A stretch of 64,000 bases of DNA from Antedon mediterranea (taxonomy: Eukaryota > Echinodermata > Crinoidea > Comatulida > Antedonidae). Of this stretch, positions 10,801 through 63,937 are shown one piece after another. Each line of letters begins with the position of its first letter. The stretch's first letter is position 1. Location: the NCBI RefSeq assembly GCF_964355755.1, contig NC_092680.1, positions 17,151,001-17,215,000 of the forward strand, given 5' to 3'. Below the pieces are notes generated by a model. It was not told where the DNA came from. It worked only from the letters and a program-made list of their open reading frames with translations, and searched no databases. Position numbers and translations under genes: made by a program.

Positions 10801-10954
10801 GGCTTGTAAATTGCTGAAATAAAATTTATTATTATTAATTCAACTTTATTCACAATTAGGCTCAGCTCAACATAAACTATGAAATGATAAACAGAAAATA
10901 GATATATATTTATTATATATTTATTACATATATAAATCCAAAGGAAAATTACTG
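7864..10954. other. Gene-free stretch, AT-rich
   Basis: About 3.1 kb without recognisable genes. The longest ORF (8391-8864, minus, 157 codons) contains a duplicated TGTGCTTTCC segment and has a hydrophobic random-looking product. A 34-bp perfect palindrome lies at 9515-9548 and an A-run of 12 near 9270. Confidence 0.5.
9515..9548. repeat. Perfect 34-bp palindrome
   Basis: AAACAAAATTTAATATT is followed directly by its exact inverse complement, with no spacer. It is AT-rich, so chance or replication slippage in low-complexity DNA is possible. Confidence 0.8.
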
Positions 10955-11216
10955 ACAAAAATGACAATGCTGTGGGTATCAGTGGCTGGAGCTCAATGGT
11001 GGAGATACAAAAAAAAAAGCGAAAAGCTAAATCAAAAAAATGAAGGAAAACAGCCAGAAAAGTTAGCAGAGGGATTGTAGGGCAACAATGGCCCTTCATC
11101 AGTGCAAGGGATATTATTTAAATAAATAAAATAAGCAAAAAGCTAAATCAAAACGAAAAAAAAAAGCCATAACAATTTGCAGAGTTTTCGGGCAACACTA
11201 TTCCTTCATCAGTGCA
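10955..11216 (-). mobile_element. Penelope-like relic: two tandem units with hammerhead-type cores
   Basis: Two direct units about 110 bp apart share AAGCTAAATCAAAA, GCAGAG, GGGCAACA and CCTTCATCAGTGCA. On the minus strand each reads CUGAUGA, a loop-closed segment, then the second core box. Cores are 11186-11212 (CUGAUGA ... GCCC GAAA) and 11076-11102 (CUGAUGA, GGGC/GCCC stem, box decayed to TACA). Tandem terminal repeats with hammerhead motifs are characteristic of Penelope-like retroelements (established knowledge). Confidence 0.6.
11178..11216 (-). ncRNA. Hammerhead-ribozyme-like motif, best preserved tandem copy
   Basis: Minus strand: UGCA (11216-11213), CUGAUGA (11212-11206), stem-loop II (partly decayed, GG/CC), GAAA (11189-11186), ACUC, then UGCA (11181-11178). 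The two UGCA words can pair as stem I, placing cleavage after the C of CUC. Stem III would be minimal, so activity would probably need a dimer, as reported for short-stem-III hammerheads. Activity is not shown by sequence. Confidence 0.5.
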
Positions 11217-11380
11217 TACAGCATACATTATATTATAATTTAGAGGTATACAAAATAATGAAATGATGTAGATGAAGGTAAGAGAAGATGGATGTTTTCA
11301 CTAGCAATAGGCCTAGGTACCAACACATTTTCACCTACTATAAATCCATGATGCAATGGTGGATCCAGGATTTTGAAAAA

Positions 11381-11507
11381 GGGGAGACGGGGCCTAAAAA
11401 GGGGGAAACAGGGCCTAAAAAGGGGGAGACGGGGCCTAAAAAAGGAGAGACGGGGCCTAAAAAAAGGGGGAAACGGGGCCTAAAAAAGGGGAGACGGGGC
11501 CTAAAAA
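11381..11507. repeat. Tandem repeat, six G-rich units of about 20-22 bp
   Basis: Units are GGGGAGACGGGGCCTAAAAA with small changes in A-run length and G/A positions. They directly follow GGTGGATCCAGGATTTTG, which resembles a hAT-type terminus, so this is probably an expanded transposon end. The array is open on the plus strand as GETGPKK repeats, but that is a by-product of the repeat. Confidence 0.85.
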
Positions 11508-12941
11508 TGGTAAAGCGTCAAACTAAATCTAATGTCTTATCTTCTTCAATTTCCTATATTGCTTTCTATTCTTTTTGATACTAAGATCAGATAACATCAT
11601 CATCATGAATCAGCCTGAACTATTTGGCATATTTGCCAACTAGAAGGAAGAGATAATTAAAAACACACTGCTAATAATTCCTTACTAAATTTCAACTAAC
11701 TATAATTGGATTGCTTAACTTTAATTTGAAGATTGATCTGTTGAGATTTCCAAAACCAACTTTAGTAATCTAATCTTAGTCTACAGATGCTAATAAATGG
11801 TATTACAAAATGAAATTTCAAAATAGATTTGCAGTTCTCATCTGTTTGTCTCTAAACAATATTGTATATGTCGCCTAATAAAGTAGGTAAATTTATTTAA
11901 AGTGATTTATATCAATATCTATTTATACTATATTCTAAACCTCTCCAATCGGTGCATACCCTGAACGATTTAAGTAGAAACTATAGAGGGCAACACATTT
12001 TCTCCCTCTCTTAATTATGAATAAACAATGTGTATGATATGATAATGTATGCATGGGTACAATTGCGCTATAAGTTACAACCATTCTGTCCAACCGAAAG
12101 ATGCAAAATTATATTACGTTTATTTTATTCCACGGCTACACAAAATCTAGGAAAGGCTTGTTTTTTTGGGTTTTTTTTATGTTTAATTAATTGATGGCAA
12201 CTAATAAATAATTATTGAAGAAGTTTTTTTCAAGTTTCATAACAAATTCTAAGTGTTACCTTGGTACCGTAGTTGATAAAGAAATTTTTTGCATTTGAAA
12301 TTGGATTTCAATTTTTCAAATATATATAGGCCTAATGCTCATGTTTTAATTCATACCACAGCCTCCTAACTATAAAGGCTATGTTGTTTTTATTTTTGAA
12401 ATTATATGGGTCAGGTGTAAAGGTGGGGACATGATCTTAATGTAATCACGGTCATATGTTATTTGACAGGTTCATTGTATCTTGATGCTTCTTTAGTAGC
12501 TATCGTTCACACTATGATTTATGACTTGTTGTTAACTCAAGTGTGTTGTCTATAAATATTGAGACATATACTGTAGAATAAAACATAACATTGTTCTGTG
12601 AAAAGGAATTGAAAGACCTCCATGATGGGCGACATTATGGCAAATGAAAGTCAGTCTAGAAAAAACAAAATACAAATCACATTGATATCAGATACATGGT
12701 CTTTTTAGGTTTATTAATGTGTTGATGAATTACCTGCATTTTCTTTAACTGGGAGAAATGACTTCAAGTGATCATTTAAATAGCATGCTCACTCTCCCAG
12801 GATAACGATTTTAAACATCTGATTGTGTATTAAAATGCAATTGGTAGCTATAACAAAATACTGGAAATCATATACAGTATCTATATATTACTGTAATGTA
12901 AAACCTGTCTGCTTTATATTCTCATTGTCCAATTACTTACA

Positions 12942-13080
12942 CTGATGATCAAGGGCTAGTGTTGCCCGAAATTGCACATTTTTCTGGCTGTTTTAGGTTT
13001 AGCTTTTCTTATTTTGTACCTCCATTCAGATCCAGCCAATGATGATACCCACAGCATTGTCATTTTTTTTTTGTAATTTG
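12942..13080 (+). mobile_element. Penelope-like relic with hammerhead core, plus orientation
   Basis: The core at 12942-12971 reads CTGATGA, TCAA, GGGC, a seven-base loop, GCCC, GAAA, with a perfect 4-bp stem II. Downstream TTTTCTGGCTGTTTTAGG, TTTAGCTTTT and CCCACAGCATTGTCA match, inverted, the repeat body at 10960-11070, so it is another copy of the same family. The stem-I partner words are lost. Confidence 0.6.
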
Positions 13081-37702: not shown

Positions 37703-40290
37703 TCAGGAATCTCAAGAAATAGAAATGTTTTTCTTAGAACAATGCTCTTTTATATCTAGTATCCATTCATCATTGTTTATGAGAAACAATGCTCTTCTAT
37801 AGCTAGTTTATATATCCCACCCACTCAGAACCCTGCTATTGTTTTAGTAGCTTTCACACTAGTCCCATTCAATTTCTCTTACTTTCTGCATTCTAACTTC
37901 TGAGGACTATCGCTATATTAAACGAAACATTGAAAATCTTTTCAGAACTATGGGATACCACAAACAAGAATGTCAAGTTGAAAATGCTGAGAGAATCTAG
38001 ACAGAAAAAGAGTTCAAGAGAGCAAACGATATAGTTACTGGTTTTGTTTTTAAACCCATCCCAACACTATGCCAATACCCAAACATGTTACCCATTTCAA
38101 GAATCATTTCAACTATGACCAAAGAAAGTTTTTACATTCGTACGAGACGAAATCTAGCACCCACCTTATATCACTGACTTAAGATATATCGGAAACTACC
38201 TCTCTATTGATCAAGATACACCAAGCACAAATTAAATCATCCAGAACCTAAATATTTTAAAAGCAACACATTACTAGAGAGGCCGAAAAAAAATGGAAAG
38301 AAAGTAATTTTTTAAATCATCATTTCATTTTGTAAATGGGTGTTTATTCGAGCAAGATAATTGGTAAACTATAACAATTCCATTAGGCTTGACTACGATA
38401 TTTACATTATTGTTCCATTAACAATTCTAATTATTTTATTGAAATGTCCTTGCATAGAAAACTACAAATTAACAATGATAACAAATTTATGTTATTATTA
38501 CTAATTAACTTTGTCACCAACTTAATGATTATCAAGTAATTCTCTTTTTGCTTTCCCCCAAAGAATACTGTTTAATTTTGTATAAATGATTTTAGGAGAC
38601 ACTTTCTTGGGGGTTAGGTTGTATAATTGATCTCTTGGGGGGTTAATAAGAGTTGTGTATGTTTAGGGTTTTAGGTAATAATTTGAAATGTATTTCATGG
38701 ATCATTAATATGTCATAACTCTGGTTCCATGCAAATTTTATTGTCTAGACGGGATTAATAGTCATGTTAATACTTTATTATATGTAAATTTCGTGTGAAG
38801 GATGAAATAGTTTATCTGTATCTAGTCAAATTAATCCTTTCGATTTCAGAACAATACAATGGATAGGGCTAGAGCGTGCCAAGACCAATTCATACTTGAT
38901 TAAATATCGTACTGCAGGTCATAAATGCGGTCTGTTTACACCGAGGACGATCAAAGTAATCAAAACTTTGAGAAACTCAAATGTTCGCCATGCAAAACTT
39001 CGAGCAATATAATACACATCACATTATAACATTATGTAATAATATTATTTGATCAAGTTAGATCAATTCAAGATTTACACCTTCAGAAAATACTCTAATC
39101 AGAAAAAAAAACAATCTAGGTCTACAAGTCTGCCATCATTGGGCTATATTATTATTATTAGGCCTAGTACTAATATTTATAATTAGTAGGAAGCCCTTGC
39201 CTCCGTAACTGCTGGTGGTCCGGCGAAGGATACTAATATCGGGTCTGGGTGGTATGCTTACCCAACCTGCCTGAGCTAAGAGAGGTTTGGCTACTTACCA
39301 TCGACAAAAAAGAGGTCTGCACTCAGAGGCTAGTAAGTAGGCTCTAGGCCTAGGCCTAGACCTATCTAGCTACAGGGGTCTAAATAAGTTTCTCTGTCTT
39401 GAGATGTTCTTGAGTCTTATGTAGATTAAAATGTTATATTGAATATAATTACATTTATTTTATCTACTATCCTAGCTTCAACAAATTGGCTGAACCACAT
39501 CGGCCAGGCCTACTTACGGGACATCCCTACTTTACCACCGCGCCTAAGCCAAGTACTTTATAGTCTGCAACATGCTGCACACTCAGCTCTCACGCACTAC
39601 TGATCATCCAATCACCAACCGTTTATGAATATGCATTAACAAGTTCGGACCAATCAAAAATAGTTTTGTATTTTTTGTCTTTTCCGCGCAATAAAATACG
39701 TACCGTATCTACTTTTGAATTTAATATACAAATCAGTGTGGTCATCAGCGTAAAGTAACTGAATAGTTTCTAATCTATCATGTTTTATTCAAATAAATAA
39801 TTTTAGTTGAAATAAATATAATACAGAGGCGTGTGTGAAAAGTATTTGAAAAAAACAATTTTGAAAATACAGCTGCTACATCCCCAGAAATCGCACTTAT
39901 TAATCAAATATGAAATATTATAAGTCTCCAATACTAGCCCACGATGGTTGAGGCAGAGTTAAGACAGTTTTGAAAAATAGAGCTGCTAGATGTCCAGGGA
40001 AATTGAACTTGTACTTTGAAATATGGTAGTGGTACTGGTAGAAAACGTACGTCACTGATGTAAAGCTAATAACTAAACAAAAAAAGTTGCAGGCTGAGAA
40101 AATTCATATTTTTGACAGGACTCTGTATGGAATAATCTGCCTTGGATGCCATTGCATGCCAAGTTGCCAATTCAAGTGTTCAGGTTTGACTTATTATAGC
40201 AACAAATAACACACGACACAGTAAGTATCATCATGTAATTGGCATTTAGCAATATTACAAGTTTGAAATTGTTCATCTGGTTTGAAGATG
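37703..40290. other. Gene-free stretch with possible decayed coding fragment and CG-rich island
   Basis: At 37940-38260 a plus-strand frame reads protein-like sequence broken by several stops, perhaps an old retroelement or pseudogene piece. At 39180-39340 a G+C-rich segment has GTAAGTAG on both strands and no recognisable protein. 39340-39370 is a GGCCTAG-rich patch. Confidence 0.35.
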
Positions 40291-41595: not shown

Positions 41596-55098
<13,503 letters not shown>

Positions 55099-63552: not shown

Positions 63553-63937
63553 TTTAAAATAAAATTTAATGACAAAAAAGTTTTGGAACCATCATGGAAA
63601 CATTCTCAAGACCAAATTTAGATTTGCACTTTAAAATAATTGACTCGACAGTCAATTGTTTCAAAGTATTCTCTAAGTGCAAATCTAAATTTGATTGTTT
63701 AATTAATGAAATGTTATGGATAAAAGAGTTGAAACTGTCACTTAACAAACAAAATGACTCACAAAGTCAAATTATTTAACAATTAACAAGAGGAGGAGCT
63801 TATCTTTTTAGGCTTTTTTATAGTATTTCCTGTCACCCTTTGGTACTTTGTTAATTGTACTCATTTGTTCTTGAGAATGGTTCCATGATGATTCCGAAAC
63901 GTCGACCTTTTTTGTCACTAAATTTTATTTTAAAGTT
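63553..63937. mobile_element. Foldback element with nested hairpin
   Basis: The outer arms (TTTAAAATAAAATTTAATGAC ... ACCATCATGGAAACATTCTC on the left, its inverse on the right) are about 60 bp. Inside, AATTTAGATTTGCACTT and AAGTGCAAATCTAAATT form a second hairpin at about 63613-63692. The right arm contains CATGATGATTCCGAAACGTC, a word pattern common in Penelope-type repeats. Confidence 0.65.

What the first reader, a model, noticed from the sequence alone, without database searches (positions are those of the whole stretch)
11076..11216. Tandem hammerhead-ribozyme-type motifs in a Penelope-like relic
Two minus-strand units 110 bp apart each carry CUGAUGA, a stem-loop II region and the GAAA-box position, flanked by GCA/UGC words able to form stem I (UGCA/UGCA in the 11178-11216 copy). 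The geometry gives cleavage after CUC. The link of hammerheads to Penelope-like elements is established; the copies here and their tandem layout are read directly. Stem III is tiny, so a dimeric ribozyme is inferred.
Basis: partly seen in the sequence, partly recalled or inferred. Interest (0 to 1): 0.7.

Follow-up and report, generated by a model that had tools for sequence, protein, structure and literature searches.

The report
Dead Penelope retrotransposon hammerhead ribozyme relics
Two decayed copies, plus a third nearby, of a short end-piece of a Penelope-like jumping gene whose intact relatives elsewhere in this genome carry a stripped-down self-cutting RNA (hammerhead ribozyme) of a kind already known.

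Summary
The minus-strand units at 11221-11124 and 11111-10928 are copies of a ~165-bp repeat; a third, missed, lies at about 12935-13080 (+). The family (1,596 near-matches to its 36-nt ribozyme word, 0 for the reversed control) is the pseudo-LTR of a Penelope-like element (RT + GIY-YIG), with a ribozyme on both sides of the ORF in L054 and L055. Family form: stem I GCA/UGC; CUGAUGA; one extra A; stem II GGGC/GCCC; GAAA; palindromic AGCU; cleavage expected after CUC. This fits what is reported of minimal, dimer-cleaving Penelope hammerheads. No window copy is intact: copy 1 lost half of stem II, copy 2 GAAA, copy 3 the cleavage segment. Rfam misses even intact family copies; a model trained on two other families finds window copy 1 (E 0.001-0.003) and, with filters off, 18 of 20 family loci given, most at background-like scores. 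In 51 sampled insertions 5' ends peak at -10 to -1 of the core (18), not at the cleavage site (3), so inserted RNAs were mostly uncut. Cleavage itself is untested.

The parts
11124..11221 (-). Copy 1: pLTR unit truncated at its 3' end. Core CTGATGA 11212-11206, extra A 11205, stem II 5' GGAA 11204-11201, loop 11200-11194, GCCC 11193-11190, GAAA 11189-11186, expected cleavage after C 11182, stem I UGCA 11216-11213 with UGCA 11181-11178
   Evidence: Sequence; 85% identity to the family unit, E 1e-23; 18.4 bits with a model trained on other families only
10928..11111 (-). Copy 2: near-complete pLTR unit ending CCTTTGGATTTATATATG. CTGATGA 11102-11096, stem II GGGC/GCCC intact, GAAA position reads TACA (11079-11076), insertion before CTC|TGC
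   Evidence: Sequence; 87-89% identity to the family unit, E 4e-61 and 5e-66; no hit with model R1 at E<=10
12935..13080 (+). Copy 3 (more diverged, opposite strand): CTGATGA 12942-12948 followed by a 3-nt insertion, stem II GGGC/GCCC intact, GAAA 12968-12971, then GCTC of the cleavage segment lost. The BLAST match starts at 12903
   Evidence: Sequence; about 74% identity, E 1e-28; 42 genome matches from 40 scored candidates; no hit with model R1 at E<=10
38933..38977 (+). Relic of a different Penelope-type hammerhead family (family B, CTGAGGA-C-GATC...GATC-GAAACGTC)
   Evidence: 23.3 bits, E 5e-5 with model R1, which includes family B sequences; 77.6% identity over 49 nt to L052
37892..37939 (+). 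Further hammerhead-like relic of Penelope type (CTGAGGAC...GAAACATTGA)
   Evidence: 16.9 bits with model R1
63863..63911 (+). Further hammerhead-like relic (CTTGAGAATGG...CCGAAACGTCGA)
   Evidence: 18.2 bits with model R1; sequence

Best explanation
The sites are decayed solo copies of the pseudo-LTR (pLTR) of a Penelope-like retrotransposon family. The pLTR carries a minimal type I hammerhead ribozyme in which stem III is only the self-complementary AGCU, so a complete active site needs two copies: the core of one unit acts on the cleavage site (after CUC) of another, as reported for dimeric Penelope hammerheads. Shown here: the family, its RT/GIY-YIG coding part, ribozymes on both sides of the ORF in two loci, direct tandem units in four, insertion at AT-rich DNA with target duplications, the hammerhead layout of the family and its damage in all three window copies. 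Inferred: (a) cleavage itself; (b) that it acts mainly on tandem read-through transcripts holding two or more pLTRs; (c) that solo copies come from RNAs that start just upstream of the ribozyme and are reverse-transcribed from an internal site at the (TA)n end of the pLTR, so that the single ribozyme is copied uncut.
For: Dispersed family of ~165 bp with 1,596 ribozyme words at <=3 mismatches against 0 reversed controls. The upstream ORF carries RVT_1 (E 3e-9 in L027, 1e-9 in L055) and GIY-YIG (E 1e-4 in both). Ribozymes flank the ORF in L054 (3,470 nt apart) and L055 (3,163 nt), and tandem units lie 171, 214, 275 and 313 nt apart in L056, L053, L051, L052. In L056 a unit ending TTTGGAT joins directly to TTCCTTCACTTG of the next. 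Hammerhead layout: families A, B and C pair in stem I with different letters (D shares A's inner three pairs), and A differs from B, C and D in stem II. One family A lineage (L063, L074, L084, the same insertion) has GGAC/GTCC, a change on both sides of one stem II pair. Model R1, built from B and C only, finds window copy 1 at 18.4 bits and the ribozyme in 18 of 20 family A loci given with filters off. The single-strand fold of the family A form gives stems I and II. Target duplications of >=9 nt in 16 of 43 insertions, against at most 8 in 200 re-pairings. 5' ends: 18 of 51 at -10 to -1, 3 of 51 at +26 to +36 around the cleavage site at +31.
Against: No Rfam hammerhead model matched intact family A copies in L025, L052, L054 and L055, nor families B and C, at E<=10, nor the window. 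RF00163 found nothing in the genome, though only 73 of 33,051 candidates were scored and no control genome rang. With default filters R1 hit the family A ribozyme in none of the 29 loci given. With filters off the commonest family A score (13.4 bits) is no better than the best background in the window (13.5 bits); two of 20 loci had no hit; window copies 2 and 3 had none. Within the B/C alignment, pairing and covariation do not exceed shuffles. Between-family changes rest on four families; A and D share stem I letters, B, C and D share stem II letters, and swapping strands still leaves 3 of 4 stem II pairs for A with the others. The ribozyme is no better conserved than the rest of the unit (0.970 against 0.971), and stem II is the least conserved part of it (0.929), its changes mostly uncompensated. 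The family fold is not better than shuffles (z -0.7). The lizard Penelope ribozyme was dispensable for insertion in vitro (PMC11167929). No cleavage was measured.
Confidence: 0.85

Rival explanations
1. The repeat is a metazoan retrozyme: an independent non-autonomous element whose ribozyme excises and circularises a monomer RNA that is then copied back.
For: Small non-coding units with a type I ribozyme, solo or short tandem, with target duplications. A retrozyme-like family (D) with a canonical ribozyme does live in this genome.
Against: The same unit is the pLTR of an RT/GIY-YIG element. Stem III is a bare palindrome. Insertion 5' ends do not sit at the cleavage site (3 of 51 within +26 to +36), where linear processed monomers would begin.
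Confidence: 0.08
2. No ribozyme: the CTGATGA...GAAA block is part of the pLTR for another reason (promoter or initiator, protein-binding or RT-initiation site) and the hammerhead resemblance is incidental.
For: 5' ends cluster just upstream of the block, as a transcription start there would give. No excess conservation of the block over the rest of the unit. Rfam silent.
Against: Two further families in the genome (B, C) carry CUGANGA-N-stem II-GAAA-palindrome-UC with other stem letters. A model from those finds family A and window copy 1, if weakly. Penelope-like elements are reported to carry minimal hammerheads (PMC6155905 and PMC7761336, passages).
Confidence: 0.06
3. The 110-nt tandem in the window is not a Penelope tandem but one solo copy that landed inside another (compatible with the best explanation).
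For: Copy 1 stops about 70 nt short of the unit end and is followed by AT-rich non-unit sequence before copy 2. The family inserts into AT-rich DNA. Close-tandem spacings read elsewhere are 171-313 nt in four loci.
Against: Same strand and close spacing fit partial tandems, and the remainder of copy 1 is not seen beyond copy 2 (by eye).
Confidence: 0.5
4. Chance motif matches in AT-rich sequence.
For: Each window copy fails a strict hammerhead test.
Against: Genome-wide family with E 1e-23 to 5e-66 for the copies; 0 occurrences of the shared word in 200 Markov copies.
Confidence: 0.01

Closest known systems
Minimal type I hammerhead ribozymes of Penelope-like elements (Cervera & De la Pena 2014; Lunse, Weinberg & Breaker 2017, cleaving as dimers)
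   Same: Type I order, CUGANGA/GAAA core, almost no stem III, copies in pLTRs and in tandem, thousands of dispersed copies in animal genomes (as described in passages of PMC7761336, PMC6155905 and PMC7229834)
   Different: Palindrome AGCU here (family A), where families B and C in the same genome have ACGU; one extra nucleotide between A9 and stem II in A, B and C. Whether published consensus drawings show that extra nucleotide could not be checked: both original papers are not held and are known here only by title and citing passages
Poseidon PAc element of Anolis carolinensis (PMC11167929; passages and part 2 of the main section seen)
   Same: pLTR-ORF-pLTR tandem, hammerhead near the ORF start, AT-rich target, internal start of reverse transcription, insertion mainly from uncleaved RNA
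   Different: In PAc the ribozyme overlaps the start codon; here the unit ends before the presumed ORF start. PAc starts copying 111-118 nt inside the ORF; the copies read here mostly end at the (TA)n stretch of the pLTR, with an ORF-entering tail seen in L052
Metazoan non-LTR retrozymes (PMC7229834)
   Same: Type I ribozyme in small repeats, solo and tandem
   Different: Those have mostly canonical ribozymes and no ORF; in this genome family D (L054:266-316), not family A, fits that description
Plus-strand hammerhead of chrysanthemum chlorotic mottle viroid
   Same: Extra residue between A9 and position 10.1 (PMC3705267, passage)
   Different: A viroid ribozyme; there A10 lowers trans-cleavage moderately, C and G strongly, U raises it 3-4-fold. 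Families A, B and C here have A, C and U at that place

Membership tests
Minimal Penelope-type hammerhead (family A as a whole) | CUGANGA core and GAAA | tested here: met
   Near-invariant in the BLAST-chosen loci (24 loci, two of them the window itself); in 28 copies CTGATGA 1.00 and GAA 0.96 (the 28 of 50 were chosen for reaching the 5' end of the unit, which favours matches at its start)
Minimal Penelope-type hammerhead (family A as a whole) | Stem II closed by loop II | tested here: met
   GGGC/GCCC in A; GATC/GATC in B, in two of three C copies and in one of two D copies; predicted in the single-strand fold. In single copies it is the least conserved part (0.929)
Minimal Penelope-type hammerhead (family A as a whole) | Stem I pairing | tested here: met
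   GCA/UGC in A, CUC/GAG in B (L052), AUUC/GAAU in C (L098), CUGCA/UGCAG in D; lost in L095, L096 and L097, so no C copy has both stems whole
Minimal Penelope-type hammerhead (family A as a whole) | Stem III reduced to a self-complementary stretch | tested here: met
   AGCU in A, ACGU in B and C
Minimal Penelope-type hammerhead (family A as a whole) | Cleaves RNA, as a dimer | not testable with these tools
   Needs a bench assay
Canonical hammerhead core | No extra residue between A9 and stem II | tested here: not met
   One extra nucleotide in A, B and C, none in D; a natural precedent is known
Minimal Penelope-type hammerhead (each window copy) | All core elements intact | tested here: not met
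   Copy 1 stem II and palindrome, copy 2 GAAA, copy 3 insertion and cleavage segment (sequences printed)
Rfam hammerhead families | Match at or above the gathering score | tested here: not met
   Window none; intact family A copies none at E<=10; family D 33.0 bits to RF02275 against gathering 52
Penelope-like retroelement | Reverse transcriptase followed by GIY-YIG endonuclease | tested here: met
   RVT_1 and GIY-YIG in L027 (GIY-YIG 22.5 bits, just under its 22.6 cut-off) and L055 (22.9, above it)
Penelope-like retroelement | pLTRs / tandem organisation | tested here: met
   L054, L055, L056
Penelope-like retroelement | AT-rich targets, target duplication, frequent 5' truncation | tested here: met
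   (some of the duplications lie in TA repeats and are weak evidence singly)
Metazoan retrozyme (family A) | Canonical ribozyme with closed stem III, no ORF partner | tested here: not met
   Bare palindrome, ORF partner present

The most novel reading that the evidence does not exclude
The ribozyme is a copy-number gate. Because it is complete only when two pLTRs sit on one RNA (or two RNAs pair), single-pLTR RNAs escape cutting and spread as SINE-like 170-190-nt inserts that keep the ribozyme, while read-through transcripts of tandem loci are cut into units. This would explain why insertions begin just upstream of the ribozyme and not at its cleavage site, why solo ribozyme copies far outnumber copies extending upstream, and why stem III is kept short.
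Probability: 0.25. Interest if true: 0.6.

Novelty: new member of a known kind. Interest (0 to 1): 0.33.

Why it matters
What Penelope-like elements do with their minimal hammerheads is described as 'still a mystery' (PMC7761336, passage). This genome offers over a thousand copies of one family in which insertion ends can be compared with the cleavage site. The sample here argues that most inserted RNAs were not cut by the ribozyme, a genomic observation that agrees with the in vitro result on the lizard element (PMC11167929). It also shows a minimal Penelope hammerhead and a canonical retrozyme-like hammerhead side by side in one genome, and that Rfam's models did not see the minimal kind.

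Tried and rejected
Rfam scans of the window and RF00163 on the genome: nothing; the genome answer is weak since no control rang and few candidates were scored. A sequence search of solved structures with the L027 ORF gave nothing at E<=0.01.

Looking for ...CGAAACGTC motifs: 7 listed rows (two overlapping), 1 control match. These gave the decayed families B and C; some rows are simple-repeat or chance matches.

Strict-scan hit at window 15579 (-): 40 Markov copies gave no such hit, so it is unlikely by simple chance. Ten matches genome-wide from nine candidates. Copies L104-L106 have, read by eye, an open frame through the motif and in two of them a GTGAGT after it, so I think it is a coding exon that resembles a hammerhead; not settled.

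Covariation test within B/C: no excess over shuffles. Conservation of the ribozyme against the rest of the unit: no excess, stem II lowest. Stem II changes in single copies: one compensated lineage, otherwise mostly broken pairs or G-U. Single-strand folding energies: not significant for family A.

First 5'-end sample of 36 loci was enlarged to 60, of which 9 were dropped as duplicates of the same insertion. The 60 are isolated hits among the first 100 listed on one contig, chosen by eye; clustered hits (48-bp arrays, close pairs) and one hit known to be in a tandem were left out. Ten of the 60 had first been fetched for an exact ribozyme word. At least two of the six ends beyond -60 (L071, L072) run off the fetched stretch, so their true ends are unknown.

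In one search one row (A_L014_check) was a wrong interval without the ribozyme and was ignored. Structure prediction was not used, as it would not bear on the question.

Full report
What was checked. The minus strand at 11221-11061 was read directly. Two units 110 nt apart each hold GCA-CTGATGA-AGG and CTC-TGC. The first (11216-11178) has GAAA but a broken stem II (GGAA against GCCC) and AACU in place of the family's palindrome. The second (11107-11066) has an intact stem II (GGGC/GCCC), but its GAAA reads TACA and a short insertion follows. A third copy, not in the finding, is on the plus strand at about 12935-13080, with a 3-nt insertion after CTGATGA and the GCTC of the cleavage segment gone. 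The shared word GCACTGATGAAGG is absent from 200 Markov copies of the window.

What it belongs to. Searching the window's own genome (G000, 354 Mb, window at C11:17151001-17215000) with copy 3 and with copies 1-2 gave 42 and 44 matches, both limited to the best 40 scored candidates. The 24 loci cut out, two of them the window itself, align as one ~165-bp unit: TTGCA CTGATGA A GGGC TAGTGTT GCCC GAAAGCTC|TGC ... CAGTAATTTGCCTTTGGAT(TA)n. Its 36-nt ribozyme word occurs 796 + 800 times at up to 3 mismatches, with 0 for the reversed control. A 3' word of the unit occurs 3,972 times, inflated by local 48-bp arrays. A word about 30-67 nt upstream of the core occurs 198 times, a lower bound because at least one sub-lineage differs there (L054).

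The autonomous partner. Some copies extend upstream into an ORF. Pfam finds RVT_1 (E 2.9e-9) and GIY-YIG (E 1.5e-4, 22.5 bits against a 22.6 cut-off) in L027, and RVT_1 (1.1e-9) and GIY-YIG (22.9 bits, above the cut-off) in L055. RT followed by GIY-YIG is the Penelope-like arrangement. The unit lies on both sides of the ORF in L054 (ribozyme words at 1029 and 4499, the second with one mismatch) and L055 (793 and 3956); upstream of the first L054 unit lies the 3' end of another ORF copy, a Penelope tandem. Other copies read had a ribozyme only 3' of the ORF (L025-L030, L057). Closer tandem units occur at spacings of 171 (L056), 214 (L053), 275 (L051) and 313 nt (L052). In L056 TTTGGAT is joined directly to TTCCTTCACTTG of the next unit. 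In L052 the first unit runs on into the presumed start of the ORF before the second unit begins, like the 'tail' of Penelope elements described in PMC11167929.

The ribozyme. In the family form the order is stem I, CUGAUGA, one extra A, stem II of 4 bp, GAA, AGCU, C17, stem I. AGCU is self-complementary, so stem III can form fully only between two units. Two more decayed families in the genome have the same layout with other letters: B (stem I CUC/GAG in L052, extra C, stem II GAUC/GAUC, ACGU) and C (stem I AUUC/GAAU in L098, stem II GAUC/GAUC in L096 and L097, extra U, ACGU; no single C copy keeps both stems). A fourth, D, is a canonical type I hammerhead with a closed stem III and no extra nucleotide (L054:266-316; Rfam RF02275 at 33.0 bits, E 5.7e-5, below its gathering score of 52). 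Swapping strands between families: in stem I the 5' strand of A forms 0 of 3 pairs with the 3' strands of B or C, and theirs 1 of 3 with A's; but A and D are interchangeable (3 of 3), and B and C nearly so (2 or 3 of 3). In stem II A against the others gives 3 of 4 one way and 2 of 4 the other, while B, C and D are interchangeable. So the independent changes are few. Within the B/C alignment pairing does not exceed shuffles: those copies are decayed. Within family A, one lineage (L063, L074, L084, duplicates of one insertion) has GGAC/GTCC, a two-sided change, while several copies have stem II changes that break a pair (L062, L068, L071/L072, L073, L086; read by eye).

Covariance models. Rfam finds nothing in the window, and no hammerhead model matches the family A copies in L025, L052, L054 and L055, or families B and C, at E<=10. 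The likely reason (recalled, not tested) is that Rfam's hammerhead models expect a stem III. Model R1, built only from seven B/C sequences, gives window copy 1 at 18.4 bits (E 0.0029 over 30 sources with default filters, 0.0011 over the window without filters), second-best in the window after a B relic at 38933-38977. With default filters it hit the family A ribozyme in none of the 29 loci given. With filters off it hits the ribozyme in 18 of 20 A loci given (10.7-18.6 bits; L060 and L091 missed), and in each of the 18 the ribozyme is the best hit. The commonest score, 13.4 bits, is level with the best window background of 13.5 bits. Copies 2 and 3 are not hit at E<=10. So the cross-family test supports copy 1 and, modestly, the family.

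How it inserts, and what that says about the ribozyme. From isolated 3' words on one contig, 60 loci were read (stretches), 51 after removing duplicates. Their 5' ends relative to the C of CTGATGA: 6 beyond -60; 4 at -60 to -31; 5 at -30 to -11; 18 at -10 to -1; 5 at 0 to +6; 2 at +7 to +25; 3 at +26 to +36 (cleavage at +31); 8 further in. The peak is just upstream of the core, at about -8 and -5; there is none at the cleavage site, where the density is about that of the next 24 nt. Target duplications of at least 9 nt were found in 16 of 43 testable insertions, against at most 8 in 200 re-pairings of flanks; several lie in TA repeats, others in non-repetitive flanks (L110, L062, L092, L085). 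Insertion is into AT-rich DNA. I read this as RNAs that begin just 5' of the ribozyme, are copied from the (TA)n end of the pLTR and were not cut by it. The sequence TCACTT at the peak resembles an initiator (recalled), which would make it a transcription start; not tested. This agrees with PMC11167929, where ribozyme mutants of the lizard element did not affect insertion and uncleaved RNA was the dominant template; that paper also found the ribozyme cut only when the protein was added.

Conservation. In the 28 of 50 copies that reach the 5' end of the unit, the 37 ribozyme positions average 0.970 identity to the reference and the rest of the unit 0.971; stem II is lowest at 0.929. Single copies therefore show no selection, as expected of dead-on-arrival inserts; only the comparison between families speaks for selection.

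The window tandem. Copy 1 ends about 70 nt short of the unit end and is followed by AT-rich non-unit sequence, then copy 2. It may be a shortened tandem or a nested insertion. No significant ORF remnant of the element was found in the window: tblastn of two L055 ORF pieces gave one row at E 0.24, while the control locus L026 gave E 5e-159.

What is known. Reviews and papers (passages seen: PMC7761336, PMC6155905, PMC7229834) state that Penelope-like elements carry minimal type I hammerheads lacking most of stem III, in tandem in their pLTRs, that thousands lie dispersed in animal genomes, and that their role is unknown. The title of Lunse et al. 2017, seen in reference lists, says they cleave as dimers; that paper and Cervera & De la Pena 2014 are not held. 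An extra residue after A9 is known in a viroid hammerhead (PMC3705267, passage; found by one search). I found no held paper comparing Penelope insertion 5' ends with the ribozyme cleavage site: searches listed 22, 2 and 4 papers, of which I looked at passages of PMC7229834, PMC11014351, PMC7761336 and PMC6155905 and at passages plus part 2 of the main section of PMC11167929 only. That is not proof of absence.

Verdict. An ordinary, correctly recognised member of a known kind, dead in the window. The part worth keeping is the reading of insertion ends, which makes the role of these ribozymes testable.

Noticed in passing
L054:266-316 (and L021, L056, L007, L099-L102): A retrozyme-like repeat with a canonical type I hammerhead (stem I CUGCA/UGCAG, closed stem III), ending in TTGGATATATA much like the Penelope unit; 60 matches from 40 scored of 326 candidates, in tandem 303 nt (L099) and 275 nt (L102) apart. 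It may be mobilised by the Penelope element.
   Followed up: partly
window 38933-38977, 37892-37939, 63863-63911 (+): Three further hammerhead-like relics of Penelope type in the same 64 kb, above background with model R1.
   Followed up: partly
window 15579-15535 (-): Sequence meeting a strict minimal-hammerhead test in a low-copy repeat (ten matches genome-wide); relatives keep an open frame through it, so probably a coding exon.
   Followed up: partly
G000 C1:2192315-2192784, C1:16946840-16947115 and other places: Exact 48-bp steps between 3' words of the unit: part of the pLTR has expanded into minisatellite arrays (48-bp repeat also visible in L038).
   Followed up: no
window 11376-11507: 21-bp G-rich tandem array (AAAAAGGGGGAGACGGGGCCT), about 6 copies, upstream (minus-strand sense) of the relics.
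   Followed up: no
window 42996-43442 (-): ORF that looks like part of a zinc transporter (cation diffusion facilitator) gene, by eye only.
   Followed up: no
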